From the NCBI GenBank assembly GCA_009691725.1, contig SIAP01000005.1:1-64000 (forward strand): a DNA stretch of 64,000 nt, in the 5' to 3' direction. The DNA comes from Phycisphaerales bacterium (GTDB taxonomy: Bacteria; Planctomycetota; Phycisphaerae; Phycisphaerales; SM1A02). Below the pieces are notes generated by a model. It ran no database searches. It was not told where the DNA came from and saw nothing but the letters and a program-made list of their open reading frames with translations. The first letter of the stretch is position 1. Every line of letters starts with the position of its first letter. Position numbers and translations under genes: made by a program. Shown here in pieces: positions 340 through 55,719 of this stretch.

Positions 340-2175
340 TCACTCGACCGTCACGCTCTTTGCCAGATTGCGCGGCTTGTCGACATCTTTCCCGCGCAGC
401 ACGGCAGCGTGATATGCCAGCAATTGCAGCGGAATCACCGAGAGAAGAGGCTGCAACTGCTCGATGACATCCGGCACATAAAACACATCTTCAGCGACCG
501 TACGGATGTGCTCATCGCCTTCGGTGGCGACAGCGATCACGTGCCCTCCGCGACTGCGCACTTCCGAGATATTGCCGAGCACCTTTTCGTACTGCGAGTT
601 TCGCGTCGCGACAAAGACGACTGGCATGCCCTGATCGATCAGCGCGATGGGACCATGCTTCATCTCTGCGGATGGCATGCCCTCCGCGTGGATGTATGAA
701 ATCTCCTTGAGCTTCAGCGCGCCTTCGAGTGCCACCGGATAGTTCACCCCCCGACCAAGGAAGAGCCAGTTCTCGCGTTCGACATAACGCGCAGTTGCCT
801 TGCAGATCACATCACTCGTTTCGAGAATGCGTTGAATCTTGTCGGGCACACCAGCCATCTCCTTGATGAACGACGTGACATACTCCTGGCTGAGAAATCT
901 GCGACGACCGATGTAGAGCGACAACATGGCGAGCGCGGTGATCTGTCCCGTGAATGCCTTCGTGCTTGCCACCCCAATCTCTGGACCAACTCGCAGATAC
1001 ACACCAGCATCGGTTTCGCGTGCGATCGTTGACCCAACCACATTCACAACGCCGAGCGCGAGCGCGCCGCGCTGCTTCGCTTCTTGCAGCGCTGCGAGCG
1101 TGTCGGCGGTCTCGCCCGACTGGCTGACTGCAATCACTGCCGTTCCAAAGTCGACGATTGGATTGCGGTATCGGAATTCGCTGGCGTAGTCATGCTCCGC
1201 AGCAATCTTGGCAAGGTCCTCCATCAAGTACTTGCCGACCATGCTGGCGTGGAAGGCTGTGCCCTGCCCGACCATCACGATGCGCTTCGCATTGGCGAGT
1301 GTGCGAGCGTGTTCGGCGATCCCACCAAGCACGATCGATCCCGTGCGCTCGTCGATGCGACCTTGCATCGTCATGCGCAGCGAGCGCGGCTGCTCAAAAA
1401 TCTCTTTGAGCATGTAGTGCTCGTAGGGACCGAGGTCGATTTCGGCGAGTTCGAATTCCAGTTCGCGCACCTCCGTGGTGAAAGCGACATTGTCGATCGT
1501 GGCGGTGCGGAATGCATCGCGGGTCAGCTTGGCCACGGTGAAGTCTGGCAATGTGAACGCCTGCGTGGTGTGTGCCACGATCGCGCTCGAATCGCTCGCG
1601 ACGATGTACTCCCCGTTGCCGACTCCAACCATCAACGGCGATCCCTTTCGGGCAACGACCAGGGTGTCTGGCTCTTTGGTGCAGATCACTGCGATCGCGT
1701 ATGCGCCGGTGACTTCGCGCAGCGCCGCTTGCACTGCCTTCTCCAAGTCACCGTGGTAGAGCTCCCCGATCAGGTGAGAGAGCACCTCGGTGTCAGTCTC
1801 GCTGGTGAAAGTATGTCCTTTTTCCTCCAAATACTTCTTTAGTACCGAGTAATTCTCGATGATCCCGTTGTGGATGATCGCGATCCCATGGCCAGCGCGT
1901 GCGTCATCGCGGTGCGGATGCGCATTCGCTTCGGTCACTCCGCCGTGCGTTGCCCAGCGGGTATGGGCGATCCCGACGGTGCCGGTCAGACCATCAACCT
2001 GACTGAGTTTCTCTTCGAGTGCGCGAACGCGACCGATCGCCTTGCAGATGTGGAGCCCATGGTTCATCACTCCAACTCCGGCGGAGTCGTAGCCGCGGTA
2101 CTCCAAGCGCTTCAATCCCTCGAGCAAGATTGGGAGTGCTTGTTTGCGACCGATGTAGGCAACGATTCCACACAT
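340..2175 (-). CDS. glmS: Glutamine-fructose-6-phosphate aminotransferase (isomerizing)
   Basis: Cytosolic enzyme that makes glucosamine-6-phosphate from fructose-6-phosphate and glutamine, the first step to UDP-GlcNAc for peptidoglycan and other aminosugar polymers. The 611 residues match the family length. The N-terminal class II glutaminase domain begins MCGIVAYIG with nucleophile Cys2 and contains HTRWATHG and HNGIIENY. Two SIS sugar-isomerase domains follow from about residue 280 (SQSGETADT; STKAFTGQ), and the protein ends in the characteristic LAKSVTVE. An AGGAG-like site lies about 10 bases before the ATG. The glutathione peroxidase gene follows 4 bp downstream. I see no glmS ribozyme in the 133-bp upstream gap. 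Confidence 0.98.
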   Translation of the reverse strand: MCGIVAYIGRKQALPILLEGLKRLEYRGYDSAGVGVMNHGLHICKAIGRVRALEEKLSQVDGLTGTVGIAHTRWATHGGVTEANAHPHRDDARAGHGIAIIHNGIIENYSVLKKYLEEKGHTFTSETDTEVLSHLIGELYHGDLEKAVQAALREVTGAYAIAVICTKEPDTLVVARKGSPLMVGVGNGEYIVASDSSAIVAHTTQAFTLPDFTVAKLTRDAFRTATIDNVAFTTEVRELEFELAEIDLGPYEHYMLKEIFEQPRSLRMTMQGRIDERTGSIVLGGIAEHARTLANAKRIVMVGQGTAFHASMVGKYLMEDLAKIAAEHDYASEFRYRNPIVDFGTAVIAVSQSGETADTLAALQEAKQRGALALGVVNVVGSTIARETDAGVYLRVGPEIGVASTKAFTGQITALAMLSLYIGRRRFLSQEYVTSFIKEMAGVPDKIQRILETSDVICKATARYVERENWLFLGRGVNYPVALEGALKLKEISYIHAEGMPSAEMKHGPIALIDQGMPVVFVATRNSQYEKVLGNISEVRSRGGHVIAVATEGDEHIRTVAEDVFYVPDVIEQLQPLLSVIPLQLLAYHAAVLRGKDVDKPRNLAKSVTVE

Positions 2176-2308
2176 GCTGAGGGACTCCTAGATGACGTGA
2201 AACGAAAGACACTCGCCACGAAGCGAGGCGTAAGGTAGCGTACGCACCCGACGCATCGTATGTGTAGTACGACGCATTGGCAGGAAGCCTTCATCGAGGT
2301 CAAGACGC

Positions 2309-2926
2309 ATGGAAGCGTCGCACACTCCTCTCGACATCACTGATCGCAAGAACGCGATTCGATCGACCATGCGTGCCCGCGTATCGGCGCTCACCGAGAG
2401 CGAGCGCGCAGCGTGGTCGCTTGCGGCGTGTGGTCGAGTGGTCGGATCCGACGCTTTCTACCGGGCAAGCACCGTGATGCTCTACATGCCCATGCGGAGC
2501 GAAGTGGATGTCATTTCGCTGGCGCTCGAGGCATTTCGGCTTGGAAAGACCGTCTGTGTTCCGCACGCCGACGCCGGACGCAAGGCGATGCACGCCATCC
2601 AAATGACATCCTTCGACGATGAATCGATGGATGCCGATTCGCTTGGTGTCCGCGTCCCAAAGTCTGGCAGGCAGATCCCCCACGACTCGATCGATCTCAT
2701 CATCGTCCCAGGCGTTGCATTTGACGCGCGTGGATTTCGACTCGGGCGCGGCGGCGGCTACTACGACCGATACCTCGCACACCTCCCCCGCAGTACAGAC
2801 ACCATCGGCATCTGCTTCGACTGCCAGTTCGTCGATGCGATTCCAACCGAGTCAACTGACATCGCCGTTCAATCGGTGGTCAGCGAGGCTCGACGCGTAC
2901 CGAATGAATCAGATCACACCTCATGA
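2309..2926 (+). CDS. 5-formyltetrahydrofolate cyclo-ligase
   Basis: Converts 5-formyl-THF to 5,10-methenyl-THF using ATP, returning a storage folate to the one-carbon pool. The 205 residues contain an early basic helix (RKNAIRSTMRARVSAL), the substrate region YMPMRSEVD, and the family fingerprint LGRGGGYYDRYL near residue 150. The gene is divergent from glmS across a 133-bp gap that must hold both promoters. Its last 23 bp overlap the preferred start of the following L,D-transpeptidase gene on the same strand, so the two are probably co-transcribed, although their functions are unrelated. Confidence 0.95.
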   Translation: MEASHTPLDITDRKNAIRSTMRARVSALTESERAAWSLAACGRVVGSDAFYRASTVMLYMPMRSEVDVISLALEAFRLGKTVCVPHADAGRKAMHAIQMTSFDDESMDADSLGVRVPKSGRQIPHDSIDLIIVPGVAFDARGFRLGRGGGYYDRYLAHLPRSTDTIGICFDCQFVDAIPTESTDIAVQSVVSEARRVPNESDHTS

Positions 2927-4082
2927 GTCCTCACCAGAAAGCACCACGATGACACTTCCAAGCCAACAGCCACGCACCGCCTCATCAATGGGATTCCTGC
3001 AAGGCGCATATCGCCGCAAATTTTTCCCGATTGCACTCGCGTTGATCGGCGCCGGCGGAGTCGTTGGCGCGACCTACTTCTTTTCACAGGGCACCGACGC
3101 GACACCGACTGCGGACAAGACTGCGACCAACACCGTGCCCCCGACTGTCGTTCCATCGACTCCCGATGCGCAGCCAGAAATGCCTGAAATACAGCCATCT
3201 TCTGCCACCTCCAATGTTGTGATGTCCGCGCCTGCCGTGGCTCCCGCACCGACTTCGATCGCACGCGTGCCCGCGGTGGCAATCGTGGGGCCCGCAGTTG
3301 CATCCTCCGCGCAGCCGACGAATCTGCAATTGCCATCCGCACTTGCGCTCGCAGAGACCGATCCTGTGGCTGCACGACTCGCGCTCACCCAATTGCTCGA
3401 TCGAAACGAGATTGCTCCCACCGATATGGTCGTGACGATGTTTGCGCTTCGGCAGTTGAACGCACAGTTGTTCTACTCGCCAGCGATCGTGGCGAACGAT
3501 CCAACCATGCGCGTCTACACCGTGAAGTCGGGGGACTCGCTCTCCAAGATCGCCAAGAACAACGATGTGCAAGCGGACTGGCGTGTCATTCAGCGCATCA
3601 ACGGAATGCGCAGCGAGAGGTCGCTCCGCGTGGGACAGAAACTGAAACTTCCCGTCTGTGCATTCCATGCAGAGGTCAGCAAGAGCAACTACGAGTTGCG
3701 CATCTACGCCGGCGAGGGTCCAACGCGCGTACTCATCGCGGCGTACACCGTCGGGCTCGGTGAACTCAACTCCACTCCAACGGGCGCATTCATGGTGCGT
3801 CCAAAGAGCAAGCTCATCAATCCGCAGTGGAAGAACCCGCGCACTGGCGAGTCATTCGCACCAGATGATCCAAAGAATCCCATCGGTGAACGATGGATCG
3901 GACTCATCGGAGTCGAAGCGCACAATCAAGGAATCAAGGGGTATGGAATCCACGGCACAATCGAGCAAGCATCGATCGGGCAGCAGGCGTCAATGGGATG
4001 CGTGCGCATGAGCGATGGGGATGTTGAGATGGTGTACGAACTTCTCACCGAGCCCAACAGCACAATCGTGATCGCTCCCTAG
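2904..4082 (+). CDS. LysM and L,D-transpeptidase (YkuD) domain protein
   Basis: Membrane-anchored cell-wall enzyme. A single N-terminal hydrophobic segment (about residues 36-56) is followed by a long Pro/Thr/Ala-rich linker. Next comes a LysM peptidoglycan-binding module (YTVKSGDSLSKIAKNNDV...LRVGQKLKLP), then a C-terminal YkuD domain with the catalytic signature GIHGTIEQASIG...SMGCVRM; the Cys in SMGCVRM is the nucleophile. L,D-transpeptidases make 3-3 cross-links or attach proteins to peptidoglycan. The reading frame is open upstream to 2619, but that part is a shadow of the cyclo-ligase gene. I prefer ATG 2904; ATG 2949 is the main alternative. Its presence supports a peptidoglycan-containing wall. 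Confidence 0.93.
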   Translation: MNQITPHESSPESTTMTLPSQQPRTASSMGFLQGAYRRKFFPIALALIGAGGVVGATYFFSQGTDATPTADKTATNTVPPTVVPSTPDAQPEMPEIQPSSATSNVVMSAPAVAPAPTSIARVPAVAIVGPAVASSAQPTNLQLPSALALAETDPVAARLALTQLLDRNEIAPTDMVVTMFALRQLNAQLFYSPAIVANDPTMRVYTVKSGDSLSKIAKNNDVQADWRVIQRINGMRSERSLRVGQKLKLPVCAFHAEVSKSNYELRIYAGEGPTRVLIAAYTVGLGELNSTPTGAFMVRPKSKLINPQWKNPRTGESFAPDDPKNPIGERWIGLIGVEAHNQGIKGYGIHGTIEQASIGQQASMGCVRMSDGDVEMVYELLTEPNSTIVIAP

Positions 4083-6619: not shown

Positions 6620-7704
6620 GCAAGTTTCGTCGCATCCTTGACCATCGCGAGCGTCTCCTCCGCGACGACATTGGCGCGCACACATCCGTCGCGCAGAATG
6701 TCGATGATCAGACCATCGTTGCCCTCATAGATGCTCCGACGGGCGCGCATCGGTTCGAGGAGTTCATTGATCGCCTGTGCAACTTCTTGCTTGACATGAC
6801 CGTCGCCGAGATTGTCCCCGCGTGAGTAGCGGTCCTTCAGTTCTGCAACGCGCGCTGGGTTGGTCACGAACGCATCGACATACTGAAAGAGTGCGTTGTC
6901 GATATTGCCCGGATCGGTCGGACTCTGCCGTCCCGTAAAGATCTTGCCAACCTTCTTCTGTATCTCCTTCGGCGGATCCGCAATAAAGATGGCATTGTTC
7001 AAACTCTTGCTCATCTTGTTCACGCCATCGGTGCCCATCAATCGACCAACGGCGCCGACATCTGCCTGTGGAATTGGAAATGTTCCGCCCAATTGTGGGT
7101 GATCACCATCTTCGGCATGCTCCGACACACCACAGAACACCTGATTGAACCGCCGCGCAACTTCGCGGGTCATCTCAAGGTGCGGAACCTGATCTTCGCC
7201 GACGGGAACGCCGGTTGGTCGAAAGGCGAGGATGTCCGCAGTCTGACCAACGGCGTAGAGCGGGAAGCCGAAGGAATAGGTCTCGCCGAGACCCTTCACC
7301 TTGATTTCATCCTTCAACGTCGGATTGCGCATCACACGATTGAATGGCAGCAACATGGCGAAGAGAAAGGTCAACTCGGCGATCGCAGGAACTTCGCTCT
7401 GCAGAAAGATTGCCGACTTCGTGGGGTCGATTCCCATCGCGAGATAGTCGCGAACAATCTCGATCGAATCGCGTCGGATGTCGGCTGCACGGTCGACGCG
7501 CGTCGTAAAGGCGTGCATGTTTGCGATGATGAAAAAGCAATCATGCGAGGATTGCAATTCCACTCGTCGCTTCACGGATCCAACCCAATGCCCCAGATGC
7601 AGCGTCCCCGTCGGGGTGTCGCCCGTCAGGATGCGGGTCCGTCCTGTCGCACAGGAGAGCGTCGACGATGGCGGAGTTGGGGTTGGCGAATTCGCAGAGT
7701 TCAT
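6589..7704 (-). CDS. trpS: Tryptophanyl-tRNA synthetase
   Basis: Class I aminoacyl-tRNA synthetase charging tRNA-Trp. The 371 residues from the ATG at 7704 include the HIGH-type motif TGTLHLGHWVGS, the Trp-binding region and KMSKS (GVNKMSKSLNNAI). The frame is open upstream to 8268, but the true start is fixed by a 4-bp ATGA overlap with the stop of the upstream CPBP protease gene, which implies translational coupling. The first ~18 residues are a Pro/Thr/Ser-rich extension before the Rossmann core. The 3' end overlaps xerC by 31 bp. Confidence 0.97.
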   Translation of the reverse strand: MNSANSPTPTPPSSTLSCATGRTRILTGDTPTGTLHLGHWVGSVKRRVELQSSHDCFFIIANMHAFTTRVDRAADIRRDSIEIVRDYLAMGIDPTKSAIFLQSEVPAIAELTFLFAMLLPFNRVMRNPTLKDEIKVKGLGETYSFGFPLYAVGQTADILAFRPTGVPVGEDQVPHLEMTREVARRFNQVFCGVSEHAEDGDHPQLGGTFPIPQADVGAVGRLMGTDGVNKMSKSLNNAIFIADPPKEIQKKVGKIFTGRQSPTDPGNIDNALFQYVDAFVTNPARVAELKDRYSRGDNLGDGHVKQEVAQAINELLEPMRARRSIYEGNDGLIIDILRDGCVRANVVAEETLAMVKDATKLAYFPRRLALG

Positions 7705-8513
7705 GCGCGAAAGAACAATATCAGGTTGGCACAATTGAAGAGTGCGTGGGCAGTGATGGGAGCAGCGATGCGGCCGGTCCGTTCCATCAGCCATCCCAGA
7801 ACGATCGCCAGCGCACAGAGTGTTGCAAGGCCCGATGCCATCGCTCCTTCGGTCAATGCGCCGATGTGGATCGCCGCGAACACCAGGCTTGTCGCGATGA
7901 TGGCGACCCATGGTCCGCAGCGCATTCCACGGAGTCCCCGTTGCAATCCACCGCGAAACGCGAACTCTTCCGCAAGAGGCGCGCAAATGGTTGCGACAAG
8001 CACCATCGCGGTTGTGAGGAGTGCGCTGGGCGAAGTTCGCAGCAGGTTGAATGTGGTGTGCCCTTCCAGAGGCTGCACGACCCCTCCGCAGAGGACTTGC
8101 AAAAATGCCGCGAGACTGCCGATCGCCTGCAGCGGGAACCACGCAACCAGTATTGCGATCACGCCGAGCCCGATCGCACGCCCGCCGCTCCACTGCGGTG
8201 ATCCCACAACATGGAGCGCAGGCTGAGCAACGACTCGACGAGCGAACACGATCAGACAGATGGCGCACTGCGTCGCGAATGTGCCAAGCGCGCGGAGGAC
8301 TGTCGCCTCGATTGAGTGATCCTCCACGACGAAGCCCAAGAGATCTCCAAGGAAGATTCCGCCGTAGGGACCAATGAGGAGCAGTGCGACAAAGAGATAG
8401 ATCGATGGGATGGGCTCAAGTGACCACGCGGATCGTTGTGATCGATCAAGCCTCATCGCACGCGCCCCCGCAATGACGCCGATGATGGCCAGCCCAATGC
8501 AGAGTGAAATCAT
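7701..8513 (-). CDS. CPBP (CAAX/Abi) family intramembrane metalloprotease
   Basis: Polytopic membrane protein of about 270 residues with the three CPBP/Abi motifs in the C-terminal half: EEFAFRGGLQRG (EExxxR), FAAIHIG (FxxxH) and HALFN (HxxxN). The Glu and His residues form the metal-dependent active site of this family, which includes Rce1-type proteases. The natural substrate is unknown. I chose ATG 8513, which places a membrane segment (MISLCIGLAIIGVIAG) at the N-terminus and leaves an 83-bp divergent gap to trpC; the longer open frame to 8831 runs inside trpC. The gene is coupled to trpS by ATGA. Confidence 0.88.
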   Translation of the reverse strand: MISLCIGLAIIGVIAGARAMRLDRSQRSAWSLEPIPSIYLFVALLLIGPYGGIFLGDLLGFVVEDHSIEATVLRALGTFATQCAICLIVFARRVVAQPALHVVGSPQWSGGRAIGLGVIAILVAWFPLQAIGSLAAFLQVLCGGVVQPLEGHTTFNLLRTSPSALLTTAMVLVATICAPLAEEFAFRGGLQRGLRGMRCGPWVAIIATSLVFAAIHIGALTEGAMASGLATLCALAIVLGWLMERTGRIAAPITAHALFNCANLILFFRA

Positions 8514-10461: not shown

Positions 10462-10488
10462 GAGAAATCTGCCGCTCCGCTTGCCATT

Positions 10489-10517
10489 TTGAAACTGTAT
10501 CGTAAGGTGTTTACGCT
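10489..10517 (+). promoter_or_regulatory. Possible promoter of the GG-peptide gene with overlapping inverted repeat
   Basis: TTGAAA at 10489-10494 and TACGCT at 10512-10517 are separated by 17 bases, a sigma-70-like arrangement with a weak -10. The inverted repeat CGTAA-N5-TTACG (10501-10515) overlaps the spacer and -10 and could be an operator. It lies 54 bases before the peptide start codon. By eye only. Confidence 0.3.
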
Positions 10518-10570
10518 TGAAGAGTTCGGTTGTGTAGACCGCCGCTCCCAAGGTCCGAGAGGAATCAACC

Positions 10571-10720
10571 ATGTCACCAAAGACAGCCAAAGCGTCAAAG
10601 ACCAAACCGAAGTCCGTCAAACTGACTGATGCCGAACTTGAGAAGGCAAGCGGAGGCGGCTCGAGCCGCGTCGCACGCAACTCGAGCGCATCTCGTCAAG
10701 CGCGGACACCGAAGCGCTAA
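10571..10720 (+). CDS. Putative double-glycine leader peptide (export substrate of the adjacent NHLM system)
   Basis: A 49-residue open frame with a strong AGAGGA ribosome site (10558-10563) 7 bases before the ATG. Residues 1-17 are Lys/Ser/Thr-rich. Residues 18-29 read LTDAELEKASGG, matching the consensus of GG-type bacteriocin leaders: Leu at -12, Glu at -8, Leu at -7 and GG at -2/-1. Cleavage after Gly29 would release a 20-residue core (Gly30-Arg49) with five Arg, one Lys and five Ser, and no Cys or aromatic residue. 124 bp downstream, on the other strand, ends an operon encoding an NHLM exporter with a C39 leader peptidase, the enzyme class that cuts such leaders. Leader and context are seen in the sequence; that it is a secreted antimicrobial or signalling peptide is inference. 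It could also be a small basic cytosolic protein. Confidence 0.6.
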   Translation: MSPKTAKASKTKPKSVKLTDAELEKASGGGSSRVARNSSASRQARTPKR

Positions 10721-10844
10721 TCCAGCGCGTCTGATCGACGAACACTATCGAAGTGACTGTTTGCATGTGGTCGGCGACCGTTCTCTGCTCCTGAACGGCC
10801 GCTGATCCCTTTTTTGTTGTGCTCGATGACGGATCACCGTGTGG

Positions 10845-13526
10845 TTAGATTCGATCCCGATGTTTTGAATCGATCATCTGCCGATGCGCCATCTCCAGAA
10901 AGGGGCCGGCAACTGCGATGAGTTCAGCGAAAGATCCAGACTGCACGATGCGCCCAGACTCCATCACGTAGATCCGATCAACATTGCGCACCGTGCTCAG
11001 TCGATGCGCGACAATGATCCGCGTGGCATCAAGTGTCTCGAGGCTCGCGACCACCTGGGACTGCGAGACCTCGTCGAGTGCACTGGTCGCCTCGTCGAAG
11101 ATCAGGATGCGCGGGCGTGTCACGAGCGCGCGGGCAATCATCAGTTTCTGGATTTGTCCTCCCGAAAGCGTTTGATCGGTGACATACGTGTGCACCCCCA
11201 TCGGCATCTCATCCACCTCGTCGCGGAACCCGGCGGCAGCGATCGCAGCAGCAGCATCACGCGCTGTAAACAGCGTGCTGCCCACAATGTTGTCGAGAAT
11301 GCTGCCAGGAATGACGCGCGTGTTCTGCACGACCGCCCCAATCTGTCGACGAACGGACACGACATCCAATCGACCCAGCGCCTTCCCATCAAAACTCACC
11401 TCTCCAAGTTCGGGCACGCGCATCCCGAGGATCAACTGGGTCAGCGTGGACTTGCCACATCCTGAGCCACCAACGATCGCCACACTCTCGCCCGCAGCGA
11501 TGTGCATCGTGACACCAGAGAGAACTTCATTGGCACTTCCCGGATAGGTAAAGTGGACATCATCGATATCGATTCTGCCGCAGAGGACTCCGGGTTGCTC
11601 GCGATCTGCTGTGCGCTCCACCGGTGCGTTCAGGATGGGGGCGATACGGCGAAGAATCGAGCGCAGCGATGCGAGGTCTCCCAACCGTTCGCCAAACTCA
11701 AGCACCGCATACAGCGCCGCGACGAAGGCACTATTGAACATGAGGTAGTGCGCAATATGATCGGTCGAACTGAGCAGTTGGGCCCCCACGGCACCGCCTG
11801 CATCGCCGGGCAGAAACATGATCCAGAAGATCATCATGCAGATCAATGGGAACGCGGTGGCAAAGATGTCGAAGATGCGTTCGAGTCTTCTGATGCGCAT
11901 CGTGGCCGATCGAACTGATCGAAACCGGTGCATCCATCTGAGCATCGCATACTGCTCACTTGCGGCACTGCGAATCGTGTCAATGCCTCCAATGAATTGC
12001 AGCACCATCGTGGCGAGTCGACCCTGACCTTCCAGCATGATGGTCGAACACTGGGCACGACCCGCGCTCAGAAGCAGGCTGAACAACACCGCCACGATGA
12101 GCAACCCGCCGCCGACATACGCCGCCGTGGTATTCACCAGCAGCATCACCACCAGATACATCAGCGAGAAGACGCCGGCCATGATTGCGGAGATTCCCGC
12201 GCCAGCGAGCAGTGTCTGGAGTTCTCCAACGGACAGAATGCGTTCTGCGAGATCGCCGCTGGTAAATGTTCGAAAGACCTCGGTCGGCATCCGCAAACAT
12301 CGATCCAGTATTCCGCCAAGTGCGCGTTTGGCGATCCGTGTCTCCGCCCGAAGCAACAGATTCGAGACGACATATCCGCATGCAGCAGCGGTCAGCGTGG
12401 TCCCGAACAGGACGAATCCCAGAAAGAGGATCCCCATTCGATCACCACTGGGCAACACACGCGCCACGAGGATGCCAGTGGCGATCGGAATCGCGAGATT
12501 GACGAGCGTTGCGATCCCGCTGACCACAAACGCCCGCACGAAATCGCGCTCGGATCCGTGGATCGCGAAACGGAGAAACTGCGCAATCGAAGATTGCTCG
12601 TGCGCGAGCGTGGGATGAAACTGCGAGGCTGTCGGGGTGAGTTGCGCCGCGAATGCATGATCGACGACGACAGGACCCTGCGTCGCGCCCGCTGAGTGAA
12701 TGAATGCCACCAGTCCATTGGCACTCGGCAAGATTGCGACGGGTGCCTGATCCTCGTTGCGAAATGTCAGCAACGCACCGACACTTGAGTTCCACCAGCC
12801 GGGATCGAGAAACACAGGGCGAATCCCAAGGCCAGCGACATGTGCGAAAATTTGTTCTGGTCGGCGGGTGTTGTCTCTTGGGATTCGACTTGGGATGCGC
12901 GCTGGTGCGCAGCCAATCTCAAGTGCGATCTGCGTGCACGCACGGACAATCGGCGGAAGTCGGGCATCTGGAAGTTCGTTCCCCATCGACGCACCCGGAG
13001 CAAGCATCGACTTCAGTTCTTCTGGAAACGACAATCGACTGATCGCGACATTGACCAATCTCCGAAGGTGTCGCTCGAATGACGACTCGATCACTGCGTC
13101 ACCCAACCGCACAAGTTCCGCCGCACATCGCTGGCAGGCGACATCGAGCGGACAGTGCGTCGACAGCGTCGATCCACATGCGACAAGCGTTGCGCCCAGC
13201 GCAGAGCAGAGAGCTCTCTCCGGCGCAGATCCTGCGGCGACTGTGCTGATACTCGCGCCAGGAACACGAAGGAACTCTGCCTCGGACACTGGCACGACTT
13301 CGACGCCAGCCACCGGTCCGACGAATGCTGCACCCGTCGACAACACGCCAATTCTGTGCCGACGACTCCCCGCATGACGCCTCGCAAAGAGCACGACCCT
13401 GCCCCGCACCAGCACCATCAGATCTGACAGTTCTTCAAGTTGCAATGGTCCACGGCGATCGAGATAGACGCTCTCACCATGCAACGTCTGCGCAGCGTGA
13501 ATGGCTGGATGAAGGAGATCGCTCAC
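10845..13526 (-). CDS. NHLM-type bacteriocin export ABC transporter, ATP-binding/permease protein
   Basis: Second ABC half-transporter of an NHLM-type system, 893 residues. The N-terminal ~350 residues are a large soluble region without a C39 peptidase signature, as known for the partner subunit of these pairs. A six-helix ABC exporter domain follows (about 350-620), then an ATPase with Walker A VGGSGCGKST, signature TLSGGQIQKLMIARAL and Walker B ILIFDEATSALD. The start overlaps the stop of the upstream peptidase-ABC gene by 4 bp (ATGA), so the two are translated together and probably form a heterodimer. It is the last gene of the operon. Confidence 0.88.
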   Translation of the reverse strand: MSDLLHPAIHAAQTLHGESVYLDRRGPLQLEELSDLMVLVRGRVVLFARRHAGSRRHRIGVLSTGAAFVGPVAGVEVVPVSEAEFLRVPGASISTVAAGSAPERALCSALGATLVACGSTLSTHCPLDVACQRCAAELVRLGDAVIESSFERHLRRLVNVAISRLSFPEELKSMLAPGASMGNELPDARLPPIVRACTQIALEIGCAPARIPSRIPRDNTRRPEQIFAHVAGLGIRPVFLDPGWWNSSVGALLTFRNEDQAPVAILPSANGLVAFIHSAGATQGPVVVDHAFAAQLTPTASQFHPTLAHEQSSIAQFLRFAIHGSERDFVRAFVVSGIATLVNLAIPIATGILVARVLPSGDRMGILFLGFVLFGTTLTAAACGYVVSNLLLRAETRIAKRALGGILDRCLRMPTEVFRTFTSGDLAERILSVGELQTLLAGAGISAIMAGVFSLMYLVVMLLVNTTAAYVGGGLLIVAVLFSLLLSAGRAQCSTIMLEGQGRLATMVLQFIGGIDTIRSAASEQYAMLRWMHRFRSVRSATMRIRRLERIFDIFATAFPLICMMIFWIMFLPGDAGGAVGAQLLSSTDHIAHYLMFNSAFVAALYAVLEFGERLGDLASLRSILRRIAPILNAPVERTADREQPGVLCGRIDIDDVHFTYPGSANEVLSGVTMHIAAGESVAIVGGSGCGKSTLTQLILGMRVPELGEVSFDGKALGRLDVVSVRRQIGAVVQNTRVIPGSILDNIVGSTLFTARDAAAAIAAAGFRDEVDEMPMGVHTYVTDQTLSGGQIQKLMIARALVTRPRILIFDEATSALDEVSQSQVVASLETLDATRIIVAHRLSTVRNVDRIYVMESGRIVQSGSFAELIAVAGPFLEMAHRQMIDSKHRDRI

Positions 13527-15745
13527 GACCCATCCCCCGCCACAAGTTCGTGATAGACGCCACCCAAGGCGAGTAGTTGATCGTGCGTTCCGCGCTCGAC
13601 GACCTCGCCCTGATCCATCACGATGATCTCATCGGCATCGCGAATCGTGCTCAAGCGATGGGCTACCACCAGGCAGGTGATGCCACGATGACGCAGTGCT
13701 TCATCGAGTGCGAGTTCGGTCACAGGATCCAGCGCGCTGGTCGCTTCATCCATGATCAGGATTGCGGGGCGCCGGGCGAGTGCGCGTGCGATATCCAGTC
13801 GCTGCGCTTCGCCCCCCGAGAAATTGCTCCCGCCCTCGGCGACCTGCTGATCGAGTCCTCCGCGATGCGTGATGAGGTGCGAGAGTTGCGCATCATCGAG
13901 CGCTTCGGCAATCCATCCATCCGGAATGTCGGGGTTCCACAGCGAGATGTTTTCACGGATCGTTCCCTCAAAGAATGCGGCGCGCTGAAAGACCGTTGCG
14001 ATACTCGCCGCGCGCACATGACGGGGAATCTGCGCGAGTGCCTGACCATCGATCAGGATGTCGCCCTCCCACGGATCGATCAGTCCTGCGGCGAGCCGAG
14101 CAACAGTGGACTTTCCAGAGCCAGTCGATCCAACGATTGCCACTCGTCCGCCCGCAGCAATCTTCAGCGAGAAATGCGCGAGCAGAGGCTCCTGTCCATG
14201 TCCGTACCCAAAGGTAATGTCACGCAATTCCAACGAGCCATGTGCGTATTCGATCTCCTGTGCATCATCCACATCGGGATCGATCGCCAGGCGATCCACG
14301 GCATGGCACATGACATCGTCCAGTCGACCAAGATCTGCGCGCACCGTTTGGATCTCGCGAATCAACTCGGCAAGCTGCGTGACCGGAGACATGAATCCCA
14401 GCAACAGAATCTGCAGCGCGAGCAGTGTTCCGATCGACATCGATCCTTGCATCACTTGCCACCCACCCAACGAGAGGACCAACACCGACACCACCAGCGC
14501 TTGGAACCACGCAGGCACAATGCTCACTGCATTCGACAGGAGACTCGCCCGCTGCCGCGCCGCGCTCACCCGTTCAGCAAATCCCATCGACCGTCCAAAG
14601 AAGTCCGCCTCGCGACCGCCAGCCTTGAGCGATTCCAAGGTCAGCAACCCCGCGATGATCGCGCCCTGCTTCATGCCTTCCTGTTGTTGTAACGATTGCG
14701 CCTGATCCACTCGAGACCGAGCCACGCAATAGAGGAGGGTGAGTGTTGCGACCACCGCCACGAGCGCGATGATCCCCATGGGAATGTTGTTCAACGCGAT
14801 CGCCACAAGAAATGCCAGAAGCGTCAAGACCTGAATGATGGCGGGGGCAAATTTTGAGGCGAGCAGCCCGGCAATCGCATCATTGCTCTGCACGCGCTCC
14901 GCAATGTCTCCGGGATATCGCTGTCCGAAAAATGAAGTCGGCATTCGAAAGAGTTGGTGGAGAAAGTCGGAAGTGCGTTCGAGCGACAGTTGTTGTTCCA
15001 GTCTGGCGAGCATGACTTGCTGGATGACAATCAACCCTGTTTCAAGAATCATGGCAATCACCGCGCCACCAAGGATCCACGGCAACCAGTCGGAGCGCCC
15101 TTCTGCAAGCACACCGTCGACGAATGTTGCAGCGATTCCCGGCAACGCGACGAGTGGAACGGCGAGCAAGAGCCCCACGAACACCGTCAACCACACCGCC
15201 ATGCCTGCACCGCGCATCCACCCTGTGACCAGATTCAATGACGATGGCGGTCCACCCGTCGGTTGAAAACTTTCGCCTGGTTCCATCTGGATGACCACAC
15301 CCGAGAACTCTTGATTGAATTCGTCAGGGGTGACGAGTCGTCGACCCTGTGCGGGATCCATGATGCGATAGCCGCGACGCGTCCATCCCTCGAGCACCAC
15401 GAAATGATTGAGCCCCCAAAATAGAATTGCGGGCAATGTGATCTCATCGAGTGCATCGGTTTCGCAGCGAATTCCCTCCGCTTCAAGTTCAAAGTGCCTC
15501 GCGGCTCGCACGATTCGCAGCGCATTGGAGCCATCACGATCCACGCCGACAGCCTCGCGAACCTCTTCAAGGGGTCGGTATGCGCGGTAATACGCCAAGA
15601 CGCTCGCCAAACTCGCAGCGCCGCACTCCGCGGCGACAACTTGCATCGTTGTTGGAACTCGAACAGAGCGCGCCTTTCCCGGCGGAAACTCAACCAATTC
15701 ATCGGGTGCGTCTGCTTCGACCTCGGGCGACTCTTCGCCGCTCAT
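13523..15745 (-). CDS. NHLM-type bacteriocin export ABC transporter, C39 peptidase/permease/ATP-binding protein
   Basis: 740-residue peptidase-containing ABC transporter (PCAT). The N-terminal C39 domain has its full catalytic set: Cys41 in QVVAAECGAASL, His114 in LNHFVVLEG and Asp130 in MDPAQG, so leader cleavage should be active. A six-helix exporter domain spans roughly residues 165-470. The ATPase has VGSTGSGKST, NFSGGEAQRLDIARAL and LIMDEATSALD. PCATs cut double-glycine leaders and export the core across the inner membrane. It is coupled by 4-bp overlaps to the adaptor gene upstream and the second ABC gene downstream. Its likely substrate is the GG peptide at 10571-10720. Confidence 0.93.
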   Translation of the reverse strand: MSGEESPEVEADAPDELVEFPPGKARSVRVPTTMQVVAAECGAASLASVLAYYRAYRPLEEVREAVGVDRDGSNALRIVRAARHFELEAEGIRCETDALDEITLPAILFWGLNHFVVLEGWTRRGYRIMDPAQGRRLVTPDEFNQEFSGVVIQMEPGESFQPTGGPPSSLNLVTGWMRGAGMAVWLTVFVGLLLAVPLVALPGIAATFVDGVLAEGRSDWLPWILGGAVIAMILETGLIVIQQVMLARLEQQLSLERTSDFLHQLFRMPTSFFGQRYPGDIAERVQSNDAIAGLLASKFAPAIIQVLTLLAFLVAIALNNIPMGIIALVAVVATLTLLYCVARSRVDQAQSLQQQEGMKQGAIIAGLLTLESLKAGGREADFFGRSMGFAERVSAARQRASLLSNAVSIVPAWFQALVVSVLVLSLGGWQVMQGSMSIGTLLALQILLLGFMSPVTQLAELIREIQTVRADLGRLDDVMCHAVDRLAIDPDVDDAQEIEYAHGSLELRDITFGYGHGQEPLLAHFSLKIAAGGRVAIVGSTGSGKSTVARLAAGLIDPWEGDILIDGQALAQIPRHVRAASIATVFQRAAFFEGTIRENISLWNPDIPDGWIAEALDDAQLSHLITHRGGLDQQVAEGGSNFSGGEAQRLDIARALARRPAILIMDEATSALDPVTELALDEALRHRGITCLVVAHRLSTIRDADEIIVMDQGEVVERGTHDQLLALGGVYHELVAGDGS

Positions 15746-16611
15746 GGCGACGAACCAGCGATCTGTCCCATGCCAGGCAAGAGCAGTGCGATGGGTCGAA
15801 TTTGGCCGACAGTGACTTCGATGTCGCAGGGAGTGCCGTTGCTGACTGCGGACGATCGGTCCGATGATGTGGTCCAGCGCAGACCACCTTGTCCGTTGGG
15901 GTCGCAGTCAATGGCAACCACGAATGCGGTCACGGTTCCGAACCGCTCGCGGATCGACTCGATCACCCCCGCACTCGGCACCCGTCCAAACATCTGATCT
16001 GGACCAGTGACGAATCCATCGATCGATGAAACTTGTCCAATGGCCTGCGCGTCACCGTAGGAATCGCCGTTGCTGAATGCGGCGCGCACTGGCATCCCAA
16101 TCTCAATGCGCTTCCCTTCAGCGAGCGGCACGAATGCGATGCAGGTTGGAGCGTCGCCGCCAGTGGCGATGAGCGCGATGATCTGACCCTTTGTGACAAA
16201 GTCCCAAACTTCGGTTTCGACTGAGACGATGGTTCCATCGGCAGACGCGAGCACCTGAGTCGACGCGTCGGCGGCCGAAGCACTCGCCGAAACAATGGCG
16301 ATGCATTCGCCGGCCAGCACGTGATCGCCATCGCGCTTGCGCATTTCGCGAATCAGTCCTTCCATCGGCGCATTGACCGTGTCAAGACGTTCGCCGCGCA
16401 AAAAGATTCCGCTGCCGATCACTGTGAGTGGGATGCGCCCAGCAAAGCCCCACACCACGACGGCCGCCAAGAGCAACGCAAGCGCAGCGGTCACCACCCA
16501 AATCTGAGGTGAGATCATGGGGCTCAGCGCATTCAGCCTGTTTCTGCCTCCTACGGATTGCAGTGCTTGCGCTCGAAAGATTTTTGCGCCGCCTTCAGAG
16601 CCAGGATTCAT
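15742..16611 (-). CDS. NHLM-type secretion adaptor (HlyD-like membrane fusion protein)
   Basis: 289 residues: a short cytosolic N-terminus, one membrane helix around residues 38-56 (ALALLLAAVVVWGFAG), then a periplasmic region with two lipoyl-like halves (NAPMEGLIREMRKRDGDHVLAGE and VETEVWDFVTKGQIIALIA). This is the membrane-fusion component that links the ABC pair to the cell envelope. It is the first gene of the export operon, with a 4-bp overlap to the peptidase-ABC gene. The stretch between helix and C-terminus is short and lacks the long coiled coil of classical HlyD, which fits the NHLM subfamily. No TolC-like outer-membrane partner lies in the window. Confidence 0.85.
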   Translation of the reverse strand: MNPGSEGGAKIFRAQALQSVGGRNRLNALSPMISPQIWVVTAALALLLAAVVVWGFAGRIPLTVIGSGIFLRGERLDTVNAPMEGLIREMRKRDGDHVLAGECIAIVSASASAADASTQVLASADGTIVSVETEVWDFVTKGQIIALIATGGDAPTCIAFVPLAEGKRIEIGMPVRAAFSNGDSYGDAQAIGQVSSIDGFVTGPDQMFGRVPSAGVIESIRERFGTVTAFVVAIDCDPNGQGGLRWTTSSDRSSAVSNGTPCDIEVTVGQIRPIALLLPGMGQIAGSSP

Positions 16612-17056: not shown

Positions 17057-17165
17057 CGATACAAGGATAGTCACAGCAGGGTCGACGGAGTGATGTGCGA
17101 TGACACGAATCCTCGAGGGGCTCGTTGCTGAGCGCGTTTTCGCTAGCATGAAAAGCCAATCACTT

Positions 17166-17236
17166 TGGGGATTGGTGTAACGGTAGCACAACAGACTCTG
17201 ACTCTGTTTGTCCTAGTTCGAATCTAGGATCCCCAA
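17166..17236 (+). tRNA. tRNA-Gln (anticodon CUG)
   Basis: The 71 nt fold into a complete cloverleaf: acceptor TGGGGAT/ATCCCCA, D-arm starting GTGTAACGG, anticodon stem ACAGA/TCTGT around loop CTCTGAC (anticodon CTG, codon CAG), T-arm CCTAG-TTCGAAT-CTAGG and discriminator A. CCA is not encoded. TAGCAT at 17144-17149 could be its -10 box. Its 3' 18 bases are repeated four more times immediately downstream. Confidence 0.95.
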
Positions 17237-17328
17237 TTTTCCGAATCTGGGATCCCCAATTTTCCGAATCTGGGATCCCCAACTTTCCGAATCTGGGATC
17301 CCCAACTTTCCGAATCTAGGATCCCCAA
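17219..17328. repeat. Five-copy 23-bp tandem repeat of the tRNA-Gln 3' end
   Basis: The last 18 bases of the tRNA (CGAATCTAGGATCCCCAA) recur at 17242, 17265, 17288 and 17311 with an exact 23-bp period and 5-base linkers (TTTTC, TTTTC, CTTTC, CTTTC). The three middle copies read CTGGG where the tRNA and the last copy read CTAGG. The repeat has no variable spacers, so it is not CRISPR. It resembles repeated attachment-site or slippage duplication of the tRNA tail. Confidence 0.95.
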
Positions 17329-17374
17329 CCGTCGGGCTCGTCCGTGCGCAATCGACCGCTGCACTCGTTGCTCG

Positions 17375-18337
17375 ATGGATACCGTGCGCCCCATGCGCGT
17401 CGTAAGCCTGCTGCCATCAGCAACAGAAATACTCTGCCGGATCGGCGGCGAGGGCCTGCTTGTTGGCAGAAGCCACGAATGCGATTGGCCGCCGAACATT
17501 CGTGATCGACCCGTGCTGACCGCACAGCGGACACCTTCACCATGCGCCGCGGATGTGAACGCAGATGCGCGCTCCGGCGCGAGCGCAGCGATCGACCGTG
17601 AGGTGCGCGCAGCGCTTGACTCTGGTCAATCGCTCTACGCGCTCAACCTCGAACTGCTGCGCGACCTGCAGCCCGATGTGATTCTCACGCAAGATGTGTG
17701 CGCAGTGTGTTCGATCGATCTTGCAACAGTGCGCCGCGTCGCGGCGACGATGCATCCCTCCCCCGCGATTGTCTCTCTGAATCCCAACTCCATCTGGGAT
17801 GTGCTGGACGATTGCTTGAAGGTTGGCGCTGCCGTTGGTTGCACGGATGGCGCAGAGCGTGCGATGGTTGAACTGCGCGAAGGCTGGTGGACTGCAGTCG
17901 ATTTCGTCAATCCGTTTGTTCAAGGACCAGAGGTGCTCTTCCTCGAGTGGATGGATCCTCCATTCTGCGGAGGTCACTGGACGCCAGAACTCGTGCACGC
18001 TGCAGGAGCGCGACACTCGCTCAATGTCCCTGGCGCAAAGAGTCGCCAGCTTGCCCCTGAAGAAATACTGACTGCCGCTCCAGAGCGCATCATCATTTGT
18101 CCCTGCGGATATGGCATCCCTGCCATTCGATCAGAGTTGGCGTCGCTTGAGAGCCAACGCTGGTGGCCACTCCTGCCAGCGAACCTCGAAGGGGATGGTC
18201 GCGTCGTGCTCGTGGACGGAAATCAAATGTTCAATCGACCCGGACCCCGTTTGGTTGACGCATTTCGCTGGCTCACAGGGTGGATCAACGATCGACCCGA
18301 GTTGATTCCTCCCGGGTTCCCTGTCGAAATGGCGTGA
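17375..18337 (+). CDS. BtuF-like cobalamin/metallophore-binding protein without signal peptide
   Basis: About 314-320 residues of the class III periplasmic-binding fold (BtuF/FhuD type), starting MRVVSLLPSATEILCRIG (ATG 17393 fits family starts best; 17375 adds six residues). Other segments seen: LLVGRSHECDWP, LQPDVILTQDVCAVC, LEWMDPPFCGGHW and NQMFNRPGPRLVDA. There is no signal peptide, which is typical of a branch of stand-alone cytosolic BtuF-like proteins annotated as cobalamin-binding. No transporter genes adjoin. The PduO adenosyltransferase at 47.4 kb shows the cell uses B12. The ligand is inferred. Confidence 0.82.
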   Translation: MDTVRPMRVVSLLPSATEILCRIGGEGLLVGRSHECDWPPNIRDRPVLTAQRTPSPCAADVNADARSGASAAIDREVRAALDSGQSLYALNLELLRDLQPDVILTQDVCAVCSIDLATVRRVAATMHPSPAIVSLNPNSIWDVLDDCLKVGAAVGCTDGAERAMVELREGWWTAVDFVNPFVQGPEVLFLEWMDPPFCGGHWTPELVHAAGARHSLNVPGAKSRQLAPEEILTAAPERIIICPCGYGIPAIRSELASLESQRWWPLLPANLEGDGRVVLVDGNQMFNRPGPRLVDAFRWLTGWINDRPELIPPGFPVEMA

Positions 18338-48920: not shown

Positions 48921-49093
48921 CGGTTGGGAAATTGGGGGGATCATCTGGACCATTTGGGACGGAAAGTTTTTGATTTTCCGCAGATTCAAGGATACATGGT
49001 TCCCCTCGCCCCGTAGACTTCTTGGGCGATATCTCGTTCACCCCCCGTTCCATTTCGTCTGAAATCAAGACCATCCGAAGGATCAATACTCTC

Positions 49094-49129
49094 ATGACAA
49101 CCATGACAACCATGACAACTACGACAACG
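49094..49129 (+). repeat. 9-bp tandem repeat in pilin leader
   Basis: ATGACAACC twice, then ATGACAACT and ACGACAACG: four 9-bp units encoding Met-Thr-Thr steps. Three in-frame ATG codons result, so repeat gain or loss changes leader length without a frameshift. Confidence 0.9.
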
Positions 49130-50272
49130 TCGAAAACTCTCTTGCCCCGCGCATTCACCATCGTCGAATTGTTGGTAGTCGTTGCGATCATCTCACTGCT
49201 CACCGCGATTCTTCTCCCAGCGATGGGTAAGGCTCGGGATGGCGCTCAAACAACGCAGTCACTGGGAAACCTCAATGCCATGTCCAAGGCCACCTTCGCC
49301 TACGGCGCTGACTGGTCCGATCGGCATTTCACTGCCATGCCTGACGATGCCGGTCAAGTCGGCGGAAGTTGCCCGCTCTATGTGTCGCAGGTTGCTTGCC
49401 CATCTCAGCAGCTTTTAGGCTTCGATACTAGTGGCGGACTTTGGGGTTACTGGATAAGCGGCTCACTCTGCCCACAGGCGGTCGGCGGTTGCTACAACTG
49501 GCCGGTCTTGCTCGCTCTGACTTGGGCCGCTCCTGGATCAGCGATTCCATATCCAAATTCATTCGGCTCCTATGCGATGCCGAACACCAAGGCTTTCAAC
49601 ACATACATCAACGGTCGTTTTTACGACAAGGTGTTCTTTGCGCCAAAGGATCGGCTCGGATTGGAAGCCTGCAACTTCGGGCTTCAGAACGAAGGTGAAT
49701 TCACGCCAAATCCAAACGGCCAGAATGCGCCAGTGTTCCCAACCTACACCTGGAGTCCAGCGAGTCTGATTCCGCCAGCGGCTCATGCCTCGTCCATTCG
49801 CGATTGCGGAAACGCAGGCAAGCAACAGAATCTCGGCCCAGGCGGGTACCGCGCTCCTTCGTGCGGTATGACGATTTATCCAGATCAGAAGACGCTCATG
49901 ATCGAGCAACTTTGGCTTCAGAATCGTGAAGGTCCAGAGTTGAACACCAACTATGCGACCCCACGAGCGTGGTTCTTCAACGAGGGTTACAACTCGTCTC
50001 CTGCATGCCTCTTCTTTGATGGTCACTCCCAGCTCTGCGGAATGAATACGGCAGTGAATGATGACAGGCGAGTCTCGACACAGAATGCGTCCAACAGCGC
50101 GATCTGCTCGCTCGGTAAGGGACTCTGGCATCGTGGAACACCAGCAGGTGCGATCGGATGGTTCGTCCCTGCTGCAGCGTACGACCCGTTGATTATATTA
50201 GCTCCAACCAGCTTCCACATGTTCACGACCGACGGAATCTTGGGTCGCGACATCCTGAAGTCAGGGAACTGA
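49094..50272 (+). CDS. Prepilin-like (type II secretion pseudopilin) protein
   Basis: 392 residues. After a Thr/Met-rich leader the sequence LLPRAFTIVELLVVVAIISLLTAILLPAM is a type IV pilin/pseudopilin N-terminus, with Ala instead of the usual Gly before the methylated Phe. The large C-terminal region ends with an FFDGHSQL element like the H-X9-DG pilin-processing domain abundant in planctomycetes. ATG 49094 follows AAGGA by 11 bases; the leader is made of four near-identical 9-bp repeats, so ATG 49103 and 49112 are equally placed. Such proteins are exported and often anchored to the envelope; the role is unknown. Followed by a strong terminator. Confidence 0.85.
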   Translation: MTTMTTMTTTTTSKTLLPRAFTIVELLVVVAIISLLTAILLPAMGKARDGAQTTQSLGNLNAMSKATFAYGADWSDRHFTAMPDDAGQVGGSCPLYVSQVACPSQQLLGFDTSGGLWGYWISGSLCPQAVGGCYNWPVLLALTWAAPGSAIPYPNSFGSYAMPNTKAFNTYINGRFYDKVFFAPKDRLGLEACNFGLQNEGEFTPNPNGQNAPVFPTYTWSPASLIPPAAHASSIRDCGNAGKQQNLGPGGYRAPSCGMTIYPDQKTLMIEQLWLQNREGPELNTNYATPRAWFFNEGYNSSPACLFFDGHSQLCGMNTAVNDDRRVSTQNASNSAICSLGKGLWHRGTPAGAIGWFVPAAAYDPLIILAPTSFHMFTTDGILGRDILKSGN

Positions 50273-54675: not shown

Positions 54676-55719
54676 CTATTGCTGATACCGCGGCACCATG
54701 GGAGGAAAGACTCCGGGCAACAGCCTGTCACGAAAGTGCATCCAGTCTCGGCGCCACGGACCCTGTGCGAGATTGTCCGCAGGCTGAGGGAAGAAGGGAC
54801 CCCATCCGCCCCCAGGCGGACCCTCAACCAATGACACAAGATTTGAATTCTGCAAAGCGTAGGTCTCGGTCGAACCATCCACATAGCTATACGTGATGTG
54901 CTTTGGCTCCCAGAATGCTGGAGTGTCGATCCATCCATCCCATCCTGCAGTGGTTCCCCACGCCGCCGGATTCACCGCCCCCGCAGGTGCGGGCGTTCCG
55001 ATTGGCGGGCGCGGATCGAGCATCCATCCCTGCTCGTTGTAGTTCAGCCCGCTCGTCCCGTCGGACTCGACAATCGACATCAGCGTTTGGGATGGCACTC
55101 GAATGTGTTTGGCATGAGTGGTGATCCATTCACGAGGCGTGATCCCCTGGCTGCAAAACCAAGTCTGCCACGATGTGCCGAAGTTGATCAGGTCAGCGGG
55201 AGTTGTCACGCCCACGAACGCGCTGAGCGCGTAACTCCGAATTCGCTGCGATGGATCAAGCGGAGATCGATAGAGCGCGAACGATCCCATGTACGGATAG
55301 AGCCTTCCTCCAGAGAGCGCCTTGGCGAGTGGGTTCGTACCGTTGAGGTTGAATTCAAATTCGGTTCCACCCACGAGACCTGCCCCATACGACGCAGTCC
55401 ACGAGTGATAGGACGCATTGGTTGTGTTTCCCTTGTTGATCGTGATCGGGAATGAACCACATGCGTTTGTGTAGGTCGTGGACAGGGTGCCCGGCAGTGC
55501 TGTGCGCGGGCTCACATATGCGCCACCGTTGTCTGCGGCGTATGCGGCTTGCGCAAGCGAGATCTGCCGCTGATTCGACAGGCAGGATGTCACGCGCGAG
55601 AGTGTGCGAGCCTTCTGAAATCCCACCAGCACAAGTGCGAGCAAGAATCCGATGATCGCCACGACGATCAGGAGTTCCGTAACCGTGAACGCGCGGATGG
55701 AAAGCGCGTGGTGCTTCAC
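54676..55719 (-). CDS. Prepilin-like pseudopilin, tandem paralogue A
   Basis: 347 residues, N-terminus SIRAFTVTELLIVVAIIGFLLALVLVGFQKA: a pilin-type helix with Ala before Phe and Glu at +5. The C-terminal region includes HITYSYVDGSTETYALQN (DG element) and PWRRDWMHFRDRLLPGVFPPMVPRYQQ. It is highly similar along its length to the gene upstream (55716-56729), with which it overlaps by 4 bp (ATGA), so the pair arose by tandem duplication and is translated together. Convergent with asnS, 14 bp apart. Envelope-exposed; role unknown. Confidence 0.85.
   Translation of the reverse strand: MKHHALSIRAFTVTELLIVVAIIGFLLALVLVGFQKARTLSRVTSCLSNQRQISLAQAAYAADNGGAYVSPRTALPGTLSTTYTNACGSFPITINKGNTTNASYHSWTASYGAGLVGGTEFEFNLNGTNPLAKALSGGRLYPYMGSFALYRSPLDPSQRIRSYALSAFVGVTTPADLINFGTSWQTWFCSQGITPREWITTHAKHIRVPSQTLMSIVESDGTSGLNYNEQGWMLDPRPPIGTPAPAGAVNPAAWGTTAGWDGWIDTPAFWEPKHITYSYVDGSTETYALQNSNLVSLVEGPPGGGWGPFFPQPADNLAQGPWRRDWMHFRDRLLPGVFPPMVPRYQQ

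What the first reader, a model, noticed from the sequence alone, without database searches (positions are those of the whole stretch)
10571..16611. Unmodified-looking double-glycine peptide beside a complete NHLM export operon
Seen: a 49-residue ORF with strong ribosome site, a leader matching GG-type consensus (L-12, E-8, L-7, G-2G-1) and an Arg/Ser-rich 20-residue core, 124 bp from the end of an operon encoding an HlyD-like adaptor, a C39 peptidase-ABC with intact Cys41/His114/Asp130, and a second ABC protein. Known: PCATs cut GG leaders during export; NHLM systems usually pair with much longer nitrile-hydratase/Nif11-type leaders and modification enzymes. Here no LanM, YcaO, radical SAM or other maturase is nearby, the leader is short, and the core has no Cys or aromatic residue. 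Inference: a minimal secreted cationic peptide (toxin or signal).
Basis: partly seen in the sequence, partly recalled or inferred. Interest (0 to 1): 0.85.

Follow-up and report, generated by a model that had tools for sequence, protein, structure and literature searches.

The report
Conserved basic double-glycine export peptide
A tiny 49-residue gene next to a peptide-export operon in freshwater Phycisphaerales bacteria is real and conserved: it makes a positively charged, apparently unmodified peptide that is probably trimmed on export by a C39 transporter, and in this genus the export machine has lost the part that normally reaches the outer-membrane channel.

Summary
The 49-aa ORF is a genuine gene. 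It occurs in 18 of 19 genomes of its genus (14/14 good ones), with invariant L-12, L-7, S-3 and Gly-Gly and purifying selection on leader and core (dN/dS about 0.15). More diverged short double-glycine peptides lie in the same place, convergent to the second ABC gene, in three other genera: 37 of 37 loci whose contigs extend past that gene. Their C39 transporters form one clade (support 100/99), separate from relatives beside classical NHLP-leader arrays. All 14 cores examined have no Asp, Glu, Cys or His and carry 6-9 Lys/Arg. LanC-like and SPASM enzymes are absent from the genus; YcaO occurs in one genome, elsewhere. So the transporter-substrate pairing and lack of known maturases are well supported. 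"Complete NHLM operon" and "secreted toxin" need correcting: the HlyD-type adaptor has lost its entire coiled-coil hairpin (82-86 aa where relatives have 221-230), and its predicted fold best matches BesA, the hairpin-less adaptor. One sister genus lost the lipoyl domain too; another keeps the hairpin and can add its own TolC. Periplasmic release is therefore plausible here. A single-copy core conserved within the genus, without an evident immunity gene, argues against a diversifying bacteriocin. The target is unknown.

The parts
10481..10504 (+). block TTGCCA-N11-TATCGTA upstream of the peptide gene, largely conserved in 18 congeneric genomes; possible promoter/operator of the divergent asd/peptide pair
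   Evidence: alignment of 18 upstream regions; not found upstream of the peptide in the other genera; no sigma-70 consensus match
10558..10563 (+). ribosome-binding site AGAGGA
   Evidence: sequence
10571..10720 (+). 49-aa double-glycine precursor peptide gene
   Evidence: conserved in 18/19 genomes of the genus, dN/dS about 0.15, alignment A1
10622..10657 (+). C39 docking motif LTDAELEKASGG (L-12 to G-1)
   Evidence: invariant L18, D20, L23, S27, G28, G29 in A1; matches the minimal motif established for LahT150 (PMC6363468)
10658..10717 (+). predicted mature core GSSRVARNSSASRQARTPKR, 6 Arg/Lys, no acidic residue, Cys or aromatic
   Evidence: composition, core dN/dS 0.15
10769..10815 (+). probable intrinsic terminator of the peptide gene: stem-loop 10769-10807 followed by T6 (10810-10815)
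   Evidence: RNA fold -21.8 kcal/mol; its 9-nt loop lies outside the limit of the terminator scan, which found none
10845..13526 (-). ABC2: NHLM-type ABC protein without active peptidase (893 aa)
   Evidence: TIGR03797 632 bits, below cut-off 709
13523..15745 (-). C39 peptidase-ABC transporter (740 aa), Cys41/His114/Asp130
   Evidence: PF03412 and TIGR03796 820.6 bits, below cut-off 853.3; LahT150 6mpz E 9e-36
15742..16611 (-). HlyD-type adaptor (289 aa): TM helix, lipoyl and beta-barrel domains, no alpha-hairpin
   Evidence: alignment A3 and motif distances, AlphaFold model, Foldseek top eight hits all BesA

Best explanation
The gene encodes a dedicated, probably unmodified substrate of the neighbouring C39 exporter. 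Inferred steps: the 49-aa precursor is made in the cytoplasm; residues L18-G29 form the short helix that docks in the hydrophobic groove of the C39 domain; Cys41 cuts after Gly29; the C39-ABC/ABC2 pair moves the 20-residue basic core across the inner membrane. The long nitrile-hydratase/Nif11 part of the leader is absent, which fits the absence of known maturases. In this genus the adaptor lacks the hairpin that normally recruits TolC, so the peptide is probably released into the periplasm, or exits by an atypical BesA-like contact. In genus g60, with hairpin and in some genomes its own TolC, it should reach the medium. Its likely role is as an acid-free, small-residue-rich polycation acting in or on the cell envelope (binding an anionic partner such as LPS, exopolysaccharide or DNA), or as a within-genus signal, rather than as a diversifying toxin. 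Shown by sequence: gene reality, linkage, motif, selection, clade, composition, hairpin loss. Inferred: cleavage, lack of modification, compartment, function.
For: Gene in 18/19 congeneric genomes; invariant docking residues; dN/dS 0.12 docking, 0.15 core. Linked and convergent to ABC2 in 37/37 testable loci of four genera, including genera where the flanking asd/apaG genes were not found. Three distant members surfaced as marginal genome-wide profile hits; two proved to lie by the transporter and the third by asd at a contig end. In 400 genomes of the order all 37 strong hits (E < 1e-8) are in those four genera. C39 clade 100/99. No other credible docking ORF in the genome. No LanC-like or SPASM in 19 genomes; YcaO in one. 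Closest solved C39 is LahT150, for which a 13-residue motif with V-4, L-7, L-12 suffices (PMC6363468). Hairpin loss. TolC gene between ABC2 and peptide in g60.
Against: No expression, cleavage or transport data. Position -4 is Ala here (usually V/L/I; V-4T was tolerated in LahT150, Ala is not reported in the passages read). The genome holds three OEP/TolC-type proteins elsewhere, so outer-membrane exit is not excluded, and hairpin-less BesA works with the TolC-like BesC. Unknown maturases cannot be ruled out. HlyD model confidence is moderate (pLDDT 70, pTM 0.54).
Confidence: 0.72

Rival explanations
1. The core is an antimicrobial (class II microcin-like) secreted to kill competitors.
For: Cationic core, C39 exporter and double-glycine leader are typical of bacteriocins; cores differ between genera.
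Against: Core is strongly conserved within the genus, single copy, no array; very hydrophilic with no aromatic residue or Cys; no immunity candidate follows the peptide: the CAAX/CPBP protease found beyond trpC in g1 and g2 is not found at the g18 and g60 loci. Adaptor without hairpin makes secretion doubtful here.
Confidence: 0.15
2. The peptide is a secreted signal sensed by its own population.
For: Small, conserved within a genus, dedicated exporter; ComC-type signals use the same leader logic.
Against: No histidine kinase, response regulator or Rgg-like gene was identified among the neighbours examined; pheromone cores usually diversify among close species.
Confidence: 0.25
3. An intracellular basic (nucleic-acid-binding) mini-protein; the double-glycine motif is coincidental and the transporter is only a neighbour.
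For: Arg-rich core; motif alone is at chance level in the genome; flanking housekeeping synteny is conserved in g1 and g2.
Against: Docking residues and GG are the most conserved part across genera; linkage persists in g18 and g60 where asd and apaG were not found beside it; strong hits are confined to the transporter clade.
Confidence: 0.06
4. A RiPP precursor modified by an enzyme encoded elsewhere (for example on Ser/Thr/Arg).
For: Ser/Thr-rich core; genomes are 70-97% complete; unknown maturases exist.
Against: LanC-like 0/19, SPASM 0/19, YcaO 1/19; no Cys; leader too short for the NHase or Nif11 scaffold.
Confidence: 0.12

Closest known systems
NHLM/NHLP export systems (TIGR03794, TIGR03796, TIGR03797 with TIGR03793/TIGR03798 precursors; Haft 2010, PMC2887384)
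   Same: Same three-gene transport cassette by best match; precursor ends in an LSDxELxxxxGG-type motif.
   Different: No nitrile-hydratase or Nif11 leader; single conserved basic core instead of variable paralogues; no LanM/YcaO; all three subunits below the curated cut-offs; adaptor without hairpin.
LahT AMS/PCAT (PDB 6mpz; PMC6363468)
   Same: Closest solved C39 domain (E 9e-36); the motif L-12, L-7, GG needed for cutting is present.
   Different: LahT acts on Nif11-type precursors; here position -4 is Ala and the leader is 29 aa.
EbfG1-4/PteB of Synechococcus elongatus (PMC4997328)
   Same: Small double-glycine proteins exported by a C39 transporter, role in biofilm rather than killing.
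   Different: EbfG mature proteins are 6-7 kDa and four redundant copies; sequence membership not tested here.
BesA hairpin-less periplasmic adaptor of Borrelia (PDB 4kkt/4kku/4kks; PMC3807786)
   Same: Predicted fold of the window adaptor matches BesA best (top eight hits); no alpha-hairpin.
   Different: BesA serves an RND efflux pump with a dedicated TolC-like BesC; 12-13% identity; here the partner is an ABC peptide exporter.
Cyanobacterial group V bacteriocin clusters (PMC3140520)
   Same: C39-ABC plus peptidase-less ABC plus HlyD with short precursors.
   Different: Those precursors average about three per cluster with very little core conservation, and NHLP/N11P precursors are mostly negatively charged; here single, conserved, positively charged.

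Membership tests
C39 peptidase-containing ABC transporter (AMS/PCAT) | PF03412 C39 domain with catalytic Cys-His-Asp fused to ABC membrane and ATPase domains | tested here: met
NHLM transporter (NCBIfam equivalogs) | TIGR03796, TIGR03797 and TIGR03794 at or above curated cut-offs | tested here: not met
   best-scoring models, but 820.6/853.3, 632.1/709.4 and 117.6/156.2 bits
NHLP / N11P precursor | nitrile-hydratase-alpha or Nif11-like leader of about 60-90 aa (TIGR03793/TIGR03798) | tested here: not met
   no NCBIfam match, whole precursor 49 aa
double-glycine (C39) substrate | L-12, L-7 and GG/GA/GS at -2/-1 upstream of a short core | tested here: met
   invariant in A1; L-12 and L-7 nearly invariant and GG invariant across four genera in A2
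double-glycine (C39) substrate | cleavage after GG by the cognate C39 domain | not testable with these tools
   needs in vitro assay
RiPP (lanthipeptide, LAP, SPASM type) | cognate LanC-like/YcaO/SPASM maturase | tested here: not met
   0/19, 1/19 and 0/19 genomes
Type I secretion system | adaptor able to contact an outer-membrane factor through an alpha-hairpin | tested here: not met
   hairpin segment missing in g1 and g18, present in g2 and g60; OEP proteins exist elsewhere in the genome
bacteriocin with immunity | immunity gene linked across the family | tested here: inconclusive
   CPBP protease found near trpC in g1 and g2 only, not at g18/g60 loci; other immunity types not tested

The most novel reading that the evidence does not exclude
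A type I peptide exporter has been turned, at least twice independently (g1 and g18), into a periplasm-directed device: the adaptor lost its TolC-reaching hairpin while the C39 exporter and its single polycationic peptide were kept, so the cell delivers an unmodified, disordered basic peptide to its own envelope instead of to the outside.
Probability: 0.33. Interest if true: 0.78.

Novelty: new variant of a known kind. Interest (0 to 1): 0.62.

Why it matters
NHLM-type exporters are read in genome mining as markers of modified bacteriocins. Here a whole clade of them in lake and other Phycisphaerales serves one conserved, very basic, apparently unmodified peptide that no curated family model describes. 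The natural series (hairpin plus own TolC, hairpin only, no hairpin, no hairpin and no lipoyl domain) makes the question of what a C39 exporter does without an outer-membrane connection directly testable.

Tried and rejected
Other copies in the genome: 15 further docking-pattern hits, none in a plausible small ORF with start and RBS. CPBP protease as immunity protein: not found with the peptide in g18/g60. Shared promoter element: the TTGCCA-N11-TATCGTA block was not found outside the genus, and no sigma-70 match. AlphaFold of the peptide: helix 20-27 as expected for docking, but pTM 0.33, so helices in the core are not used. Pfam/NCBIfam: no hit for the peptide. First profile alone (A1) found distant members only marginally; a broader alignment A2 was built from loci found by linkage, so one search is partly circular for those genera, but not for the absence of strong hits elsewhere.

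Full report
WHAT IS THERE. The ORF 10571-10720 (+) gives MSPKTAKASKTKPKSVKLTDAELEKASGG|GSSRVARNSSASRQARTPKR with RBS AGAGGA seven bases upstream. It faces the end of a - strand operon of HlyD-type adaptor, C39-ABC and ABC2 genes that overlap by 4 bp at each junction; the two stops are 124 bp apart, and a stem-loop with T6 follows the peptide gene (the consensus scanner found no terminator). On its other side, 124 bp away, asd is divergent. The neighbours are housekeeping genes: xerC, trpS, a CPBP protease, trpC, asd, apaG, a BtuF-like protein, clpB.

IS IT REAL. The docking pattern alone is not significant in this genome (16 hits, 18 for the reversed control), and none of the other 15 lies in a credible small gene. 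Conservation decides: 18 of 19 genomes of the genus carry it, 14 of 14 of good quality, at E 1e-11 or better. Invariant positions are M1, K10, K14, L18, D20, L23, S27, G28, G29 and, in the core, R33, V34, R36, N37, R42, R45, P47, K48, R49. Pairwise Nei-Gojobori dN/dS is 0.12 for the docking motif and 0.15 for the core, with synonymous differences near 0.5 per site. The one genome without a hit (G009, 70% complete) has a contig that ends inside ABC2. Named relatives are MAGs of Phycisphaerales/Planctomycetota, among them from Lake Baikal.

BEYOND THE GENUS. Profile A1 gave marginal hits in other genera. G146 (g18) and G199 (g60) lie convergent to ABC2 of an NHLM-type operon; G152 (g2) lies beside asd at a contig end. 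Reading around the C39 loci found in 58 genomes of the family and further contigs gives linkage in g1 18, g2 1, g18 7, g60 11: 37 of 37 loci whose contig extends past ABC2. In several of these only part of ABC2 is on the contig with the peptide. asd and apaG were found beside the operon in g1 and g2 but not at the g18 and g60 loci, so the link is not explained by frozen synteny alone. In 400 genomes of the order, all 37 hits below 1e-8 fall in those four genera; that profile was built partly from linked peptides, so it says little about still more diverged members.

TWO KINDS OF SYSTEM. The C39 proteins of the four genera form one clade of 36 rows with support 100/99 (the place of the long-branched G019 is unsure). 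Relatives outside it include operons preceded by classical NHLP-leader peptides, for example in G080, G155, G202 and G203. NHLP cores there are variable, often with Cys, aromatic and acidic residues. The 14 cores of the short-leader type examined are 20-43 aa, have no D, E, C or H, at most one aromatic residue, 6-9 K/R and 50-70% G/A/S/T/P. Between genera the sequence drifts while this composition stays.

NO MATURASE FOUND. LanC-like proteins and SPASM domains are absent from 19 genomes; YcaO is found in one, elsewhere. This covers the main maturases of NHLM systems, not every possible one. Bobeica et al. showed that LahT150, the closest solved relative of this C39 domain, needs only the last 13 leader residues, with V-4, L-7 and L-12 in a hydrophobic groove (PMC6363468). 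The short leader here is close to that minimum plus a basic tail. The reading that the long NHase or Nif11 part is dispensable when there is no maturase to bind is my inference.

THE ADAPTOR. Between the membrane-proximal motif and the beta-barrel motif, adaptors of g2 and g60 have 221 residues and those of the NHLP-array type 226-230. In g1 there are 82-86, in g18 only 10; A3 shows the same gap in the remaining g1 sequences. The missing part in g1 is the coiled-coil hairpin, and in g18 the lipoyl domain as well. In the window the lipoyl domain is contiguous and matches biotinyl domains without an insertion. The AlphaFold model has a TM helix, lipoyl and barrel strands and no coiled coil (moderate confidence), and its eight best PDB matches are all BesA, described as lacking the alpha-hairpin that underpins exit-duct recruitment (PMC3807786). 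In g60, with the hairpin, a TolC-family protein (PF02321, 2e-28 in G188) is encoded between ABC2 and the peptide; some other g60 genomes have the peptide directly after ABC2. Because g18 groups with g60 and g2 in the C39 tree, two independent losses are the simplest reading. For an ABC exporter without a periplasmic domain, a hairpin-less adaptor should not span to TolC, so periplasmic release is plausible in g1 and g18. The window genome does encode three OEP proteins, and BesA works with BesC, so this is not proven.

FUNCTION. A core held by purifying selection across a genus, in single copy and without a linked immunity gene, is unlike most bacteriocins. A polycation acting on the cell's own envelope, or a signal, fits better. 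EbfG/PteB of Synechococcus shows that C39-exported double-glycine proteins can serve biofilm formation (PMC4997328). The target is unknown.

NOVELTY. Searches of the open literature held here found no description of this family; subscription papers were not searched. I call it a new variant of a known kind.

Noticed in passing
L090 (G079, genus g39) 1964-3089: A small array mixes one NHLP-leader precursor (its start may lie further upstream) with three precursors of short acidic leader (MTDDKKKPEDETPKAQAEDAKPSEDLSDEELSKAAGG type): long and short leaders side by side, perhaps a step from NHLP to short leaders.
   Followed up: partly
L146, L147, L148, L150 (G202, G203, G155, G080): Classical NHLP-leader peptides, mostly in arrays, beside NHLM operons in Phycisphaerales, with short variable cores.
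   Followed up: partly
window 7701-8400 (-): CPBP/CAAX-type membrane protease next to trpC, found at the same place in g1 and g2 loci.
   Followed up: yes
window about 17160-17499: Repetitive DNA (GGGGATCCCAGATTCG-like units) upstream of the BtuF-like gene, visible as repeated GDPRFGKLGIPDSENWGS in the minus-strand ORFs.
   Followed up: no
G015:C26:11904-12923: The only YcaO protein in the genus (E 8e-98), on another contig than the peptide operon.
   Followed up: no
L142 10769-12961 (G188, genus g60): Dedicated TolC-family gene inserted between ABC2 and the peptide; some other g60 genomes lack the insert at this place.
   Followed up: partly
window 49022-50272, 54676-56729: Three pseudopilin-like proteins with prepilin-type N-termini, two of them in tandem and similar to each other.
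   Followed up: no
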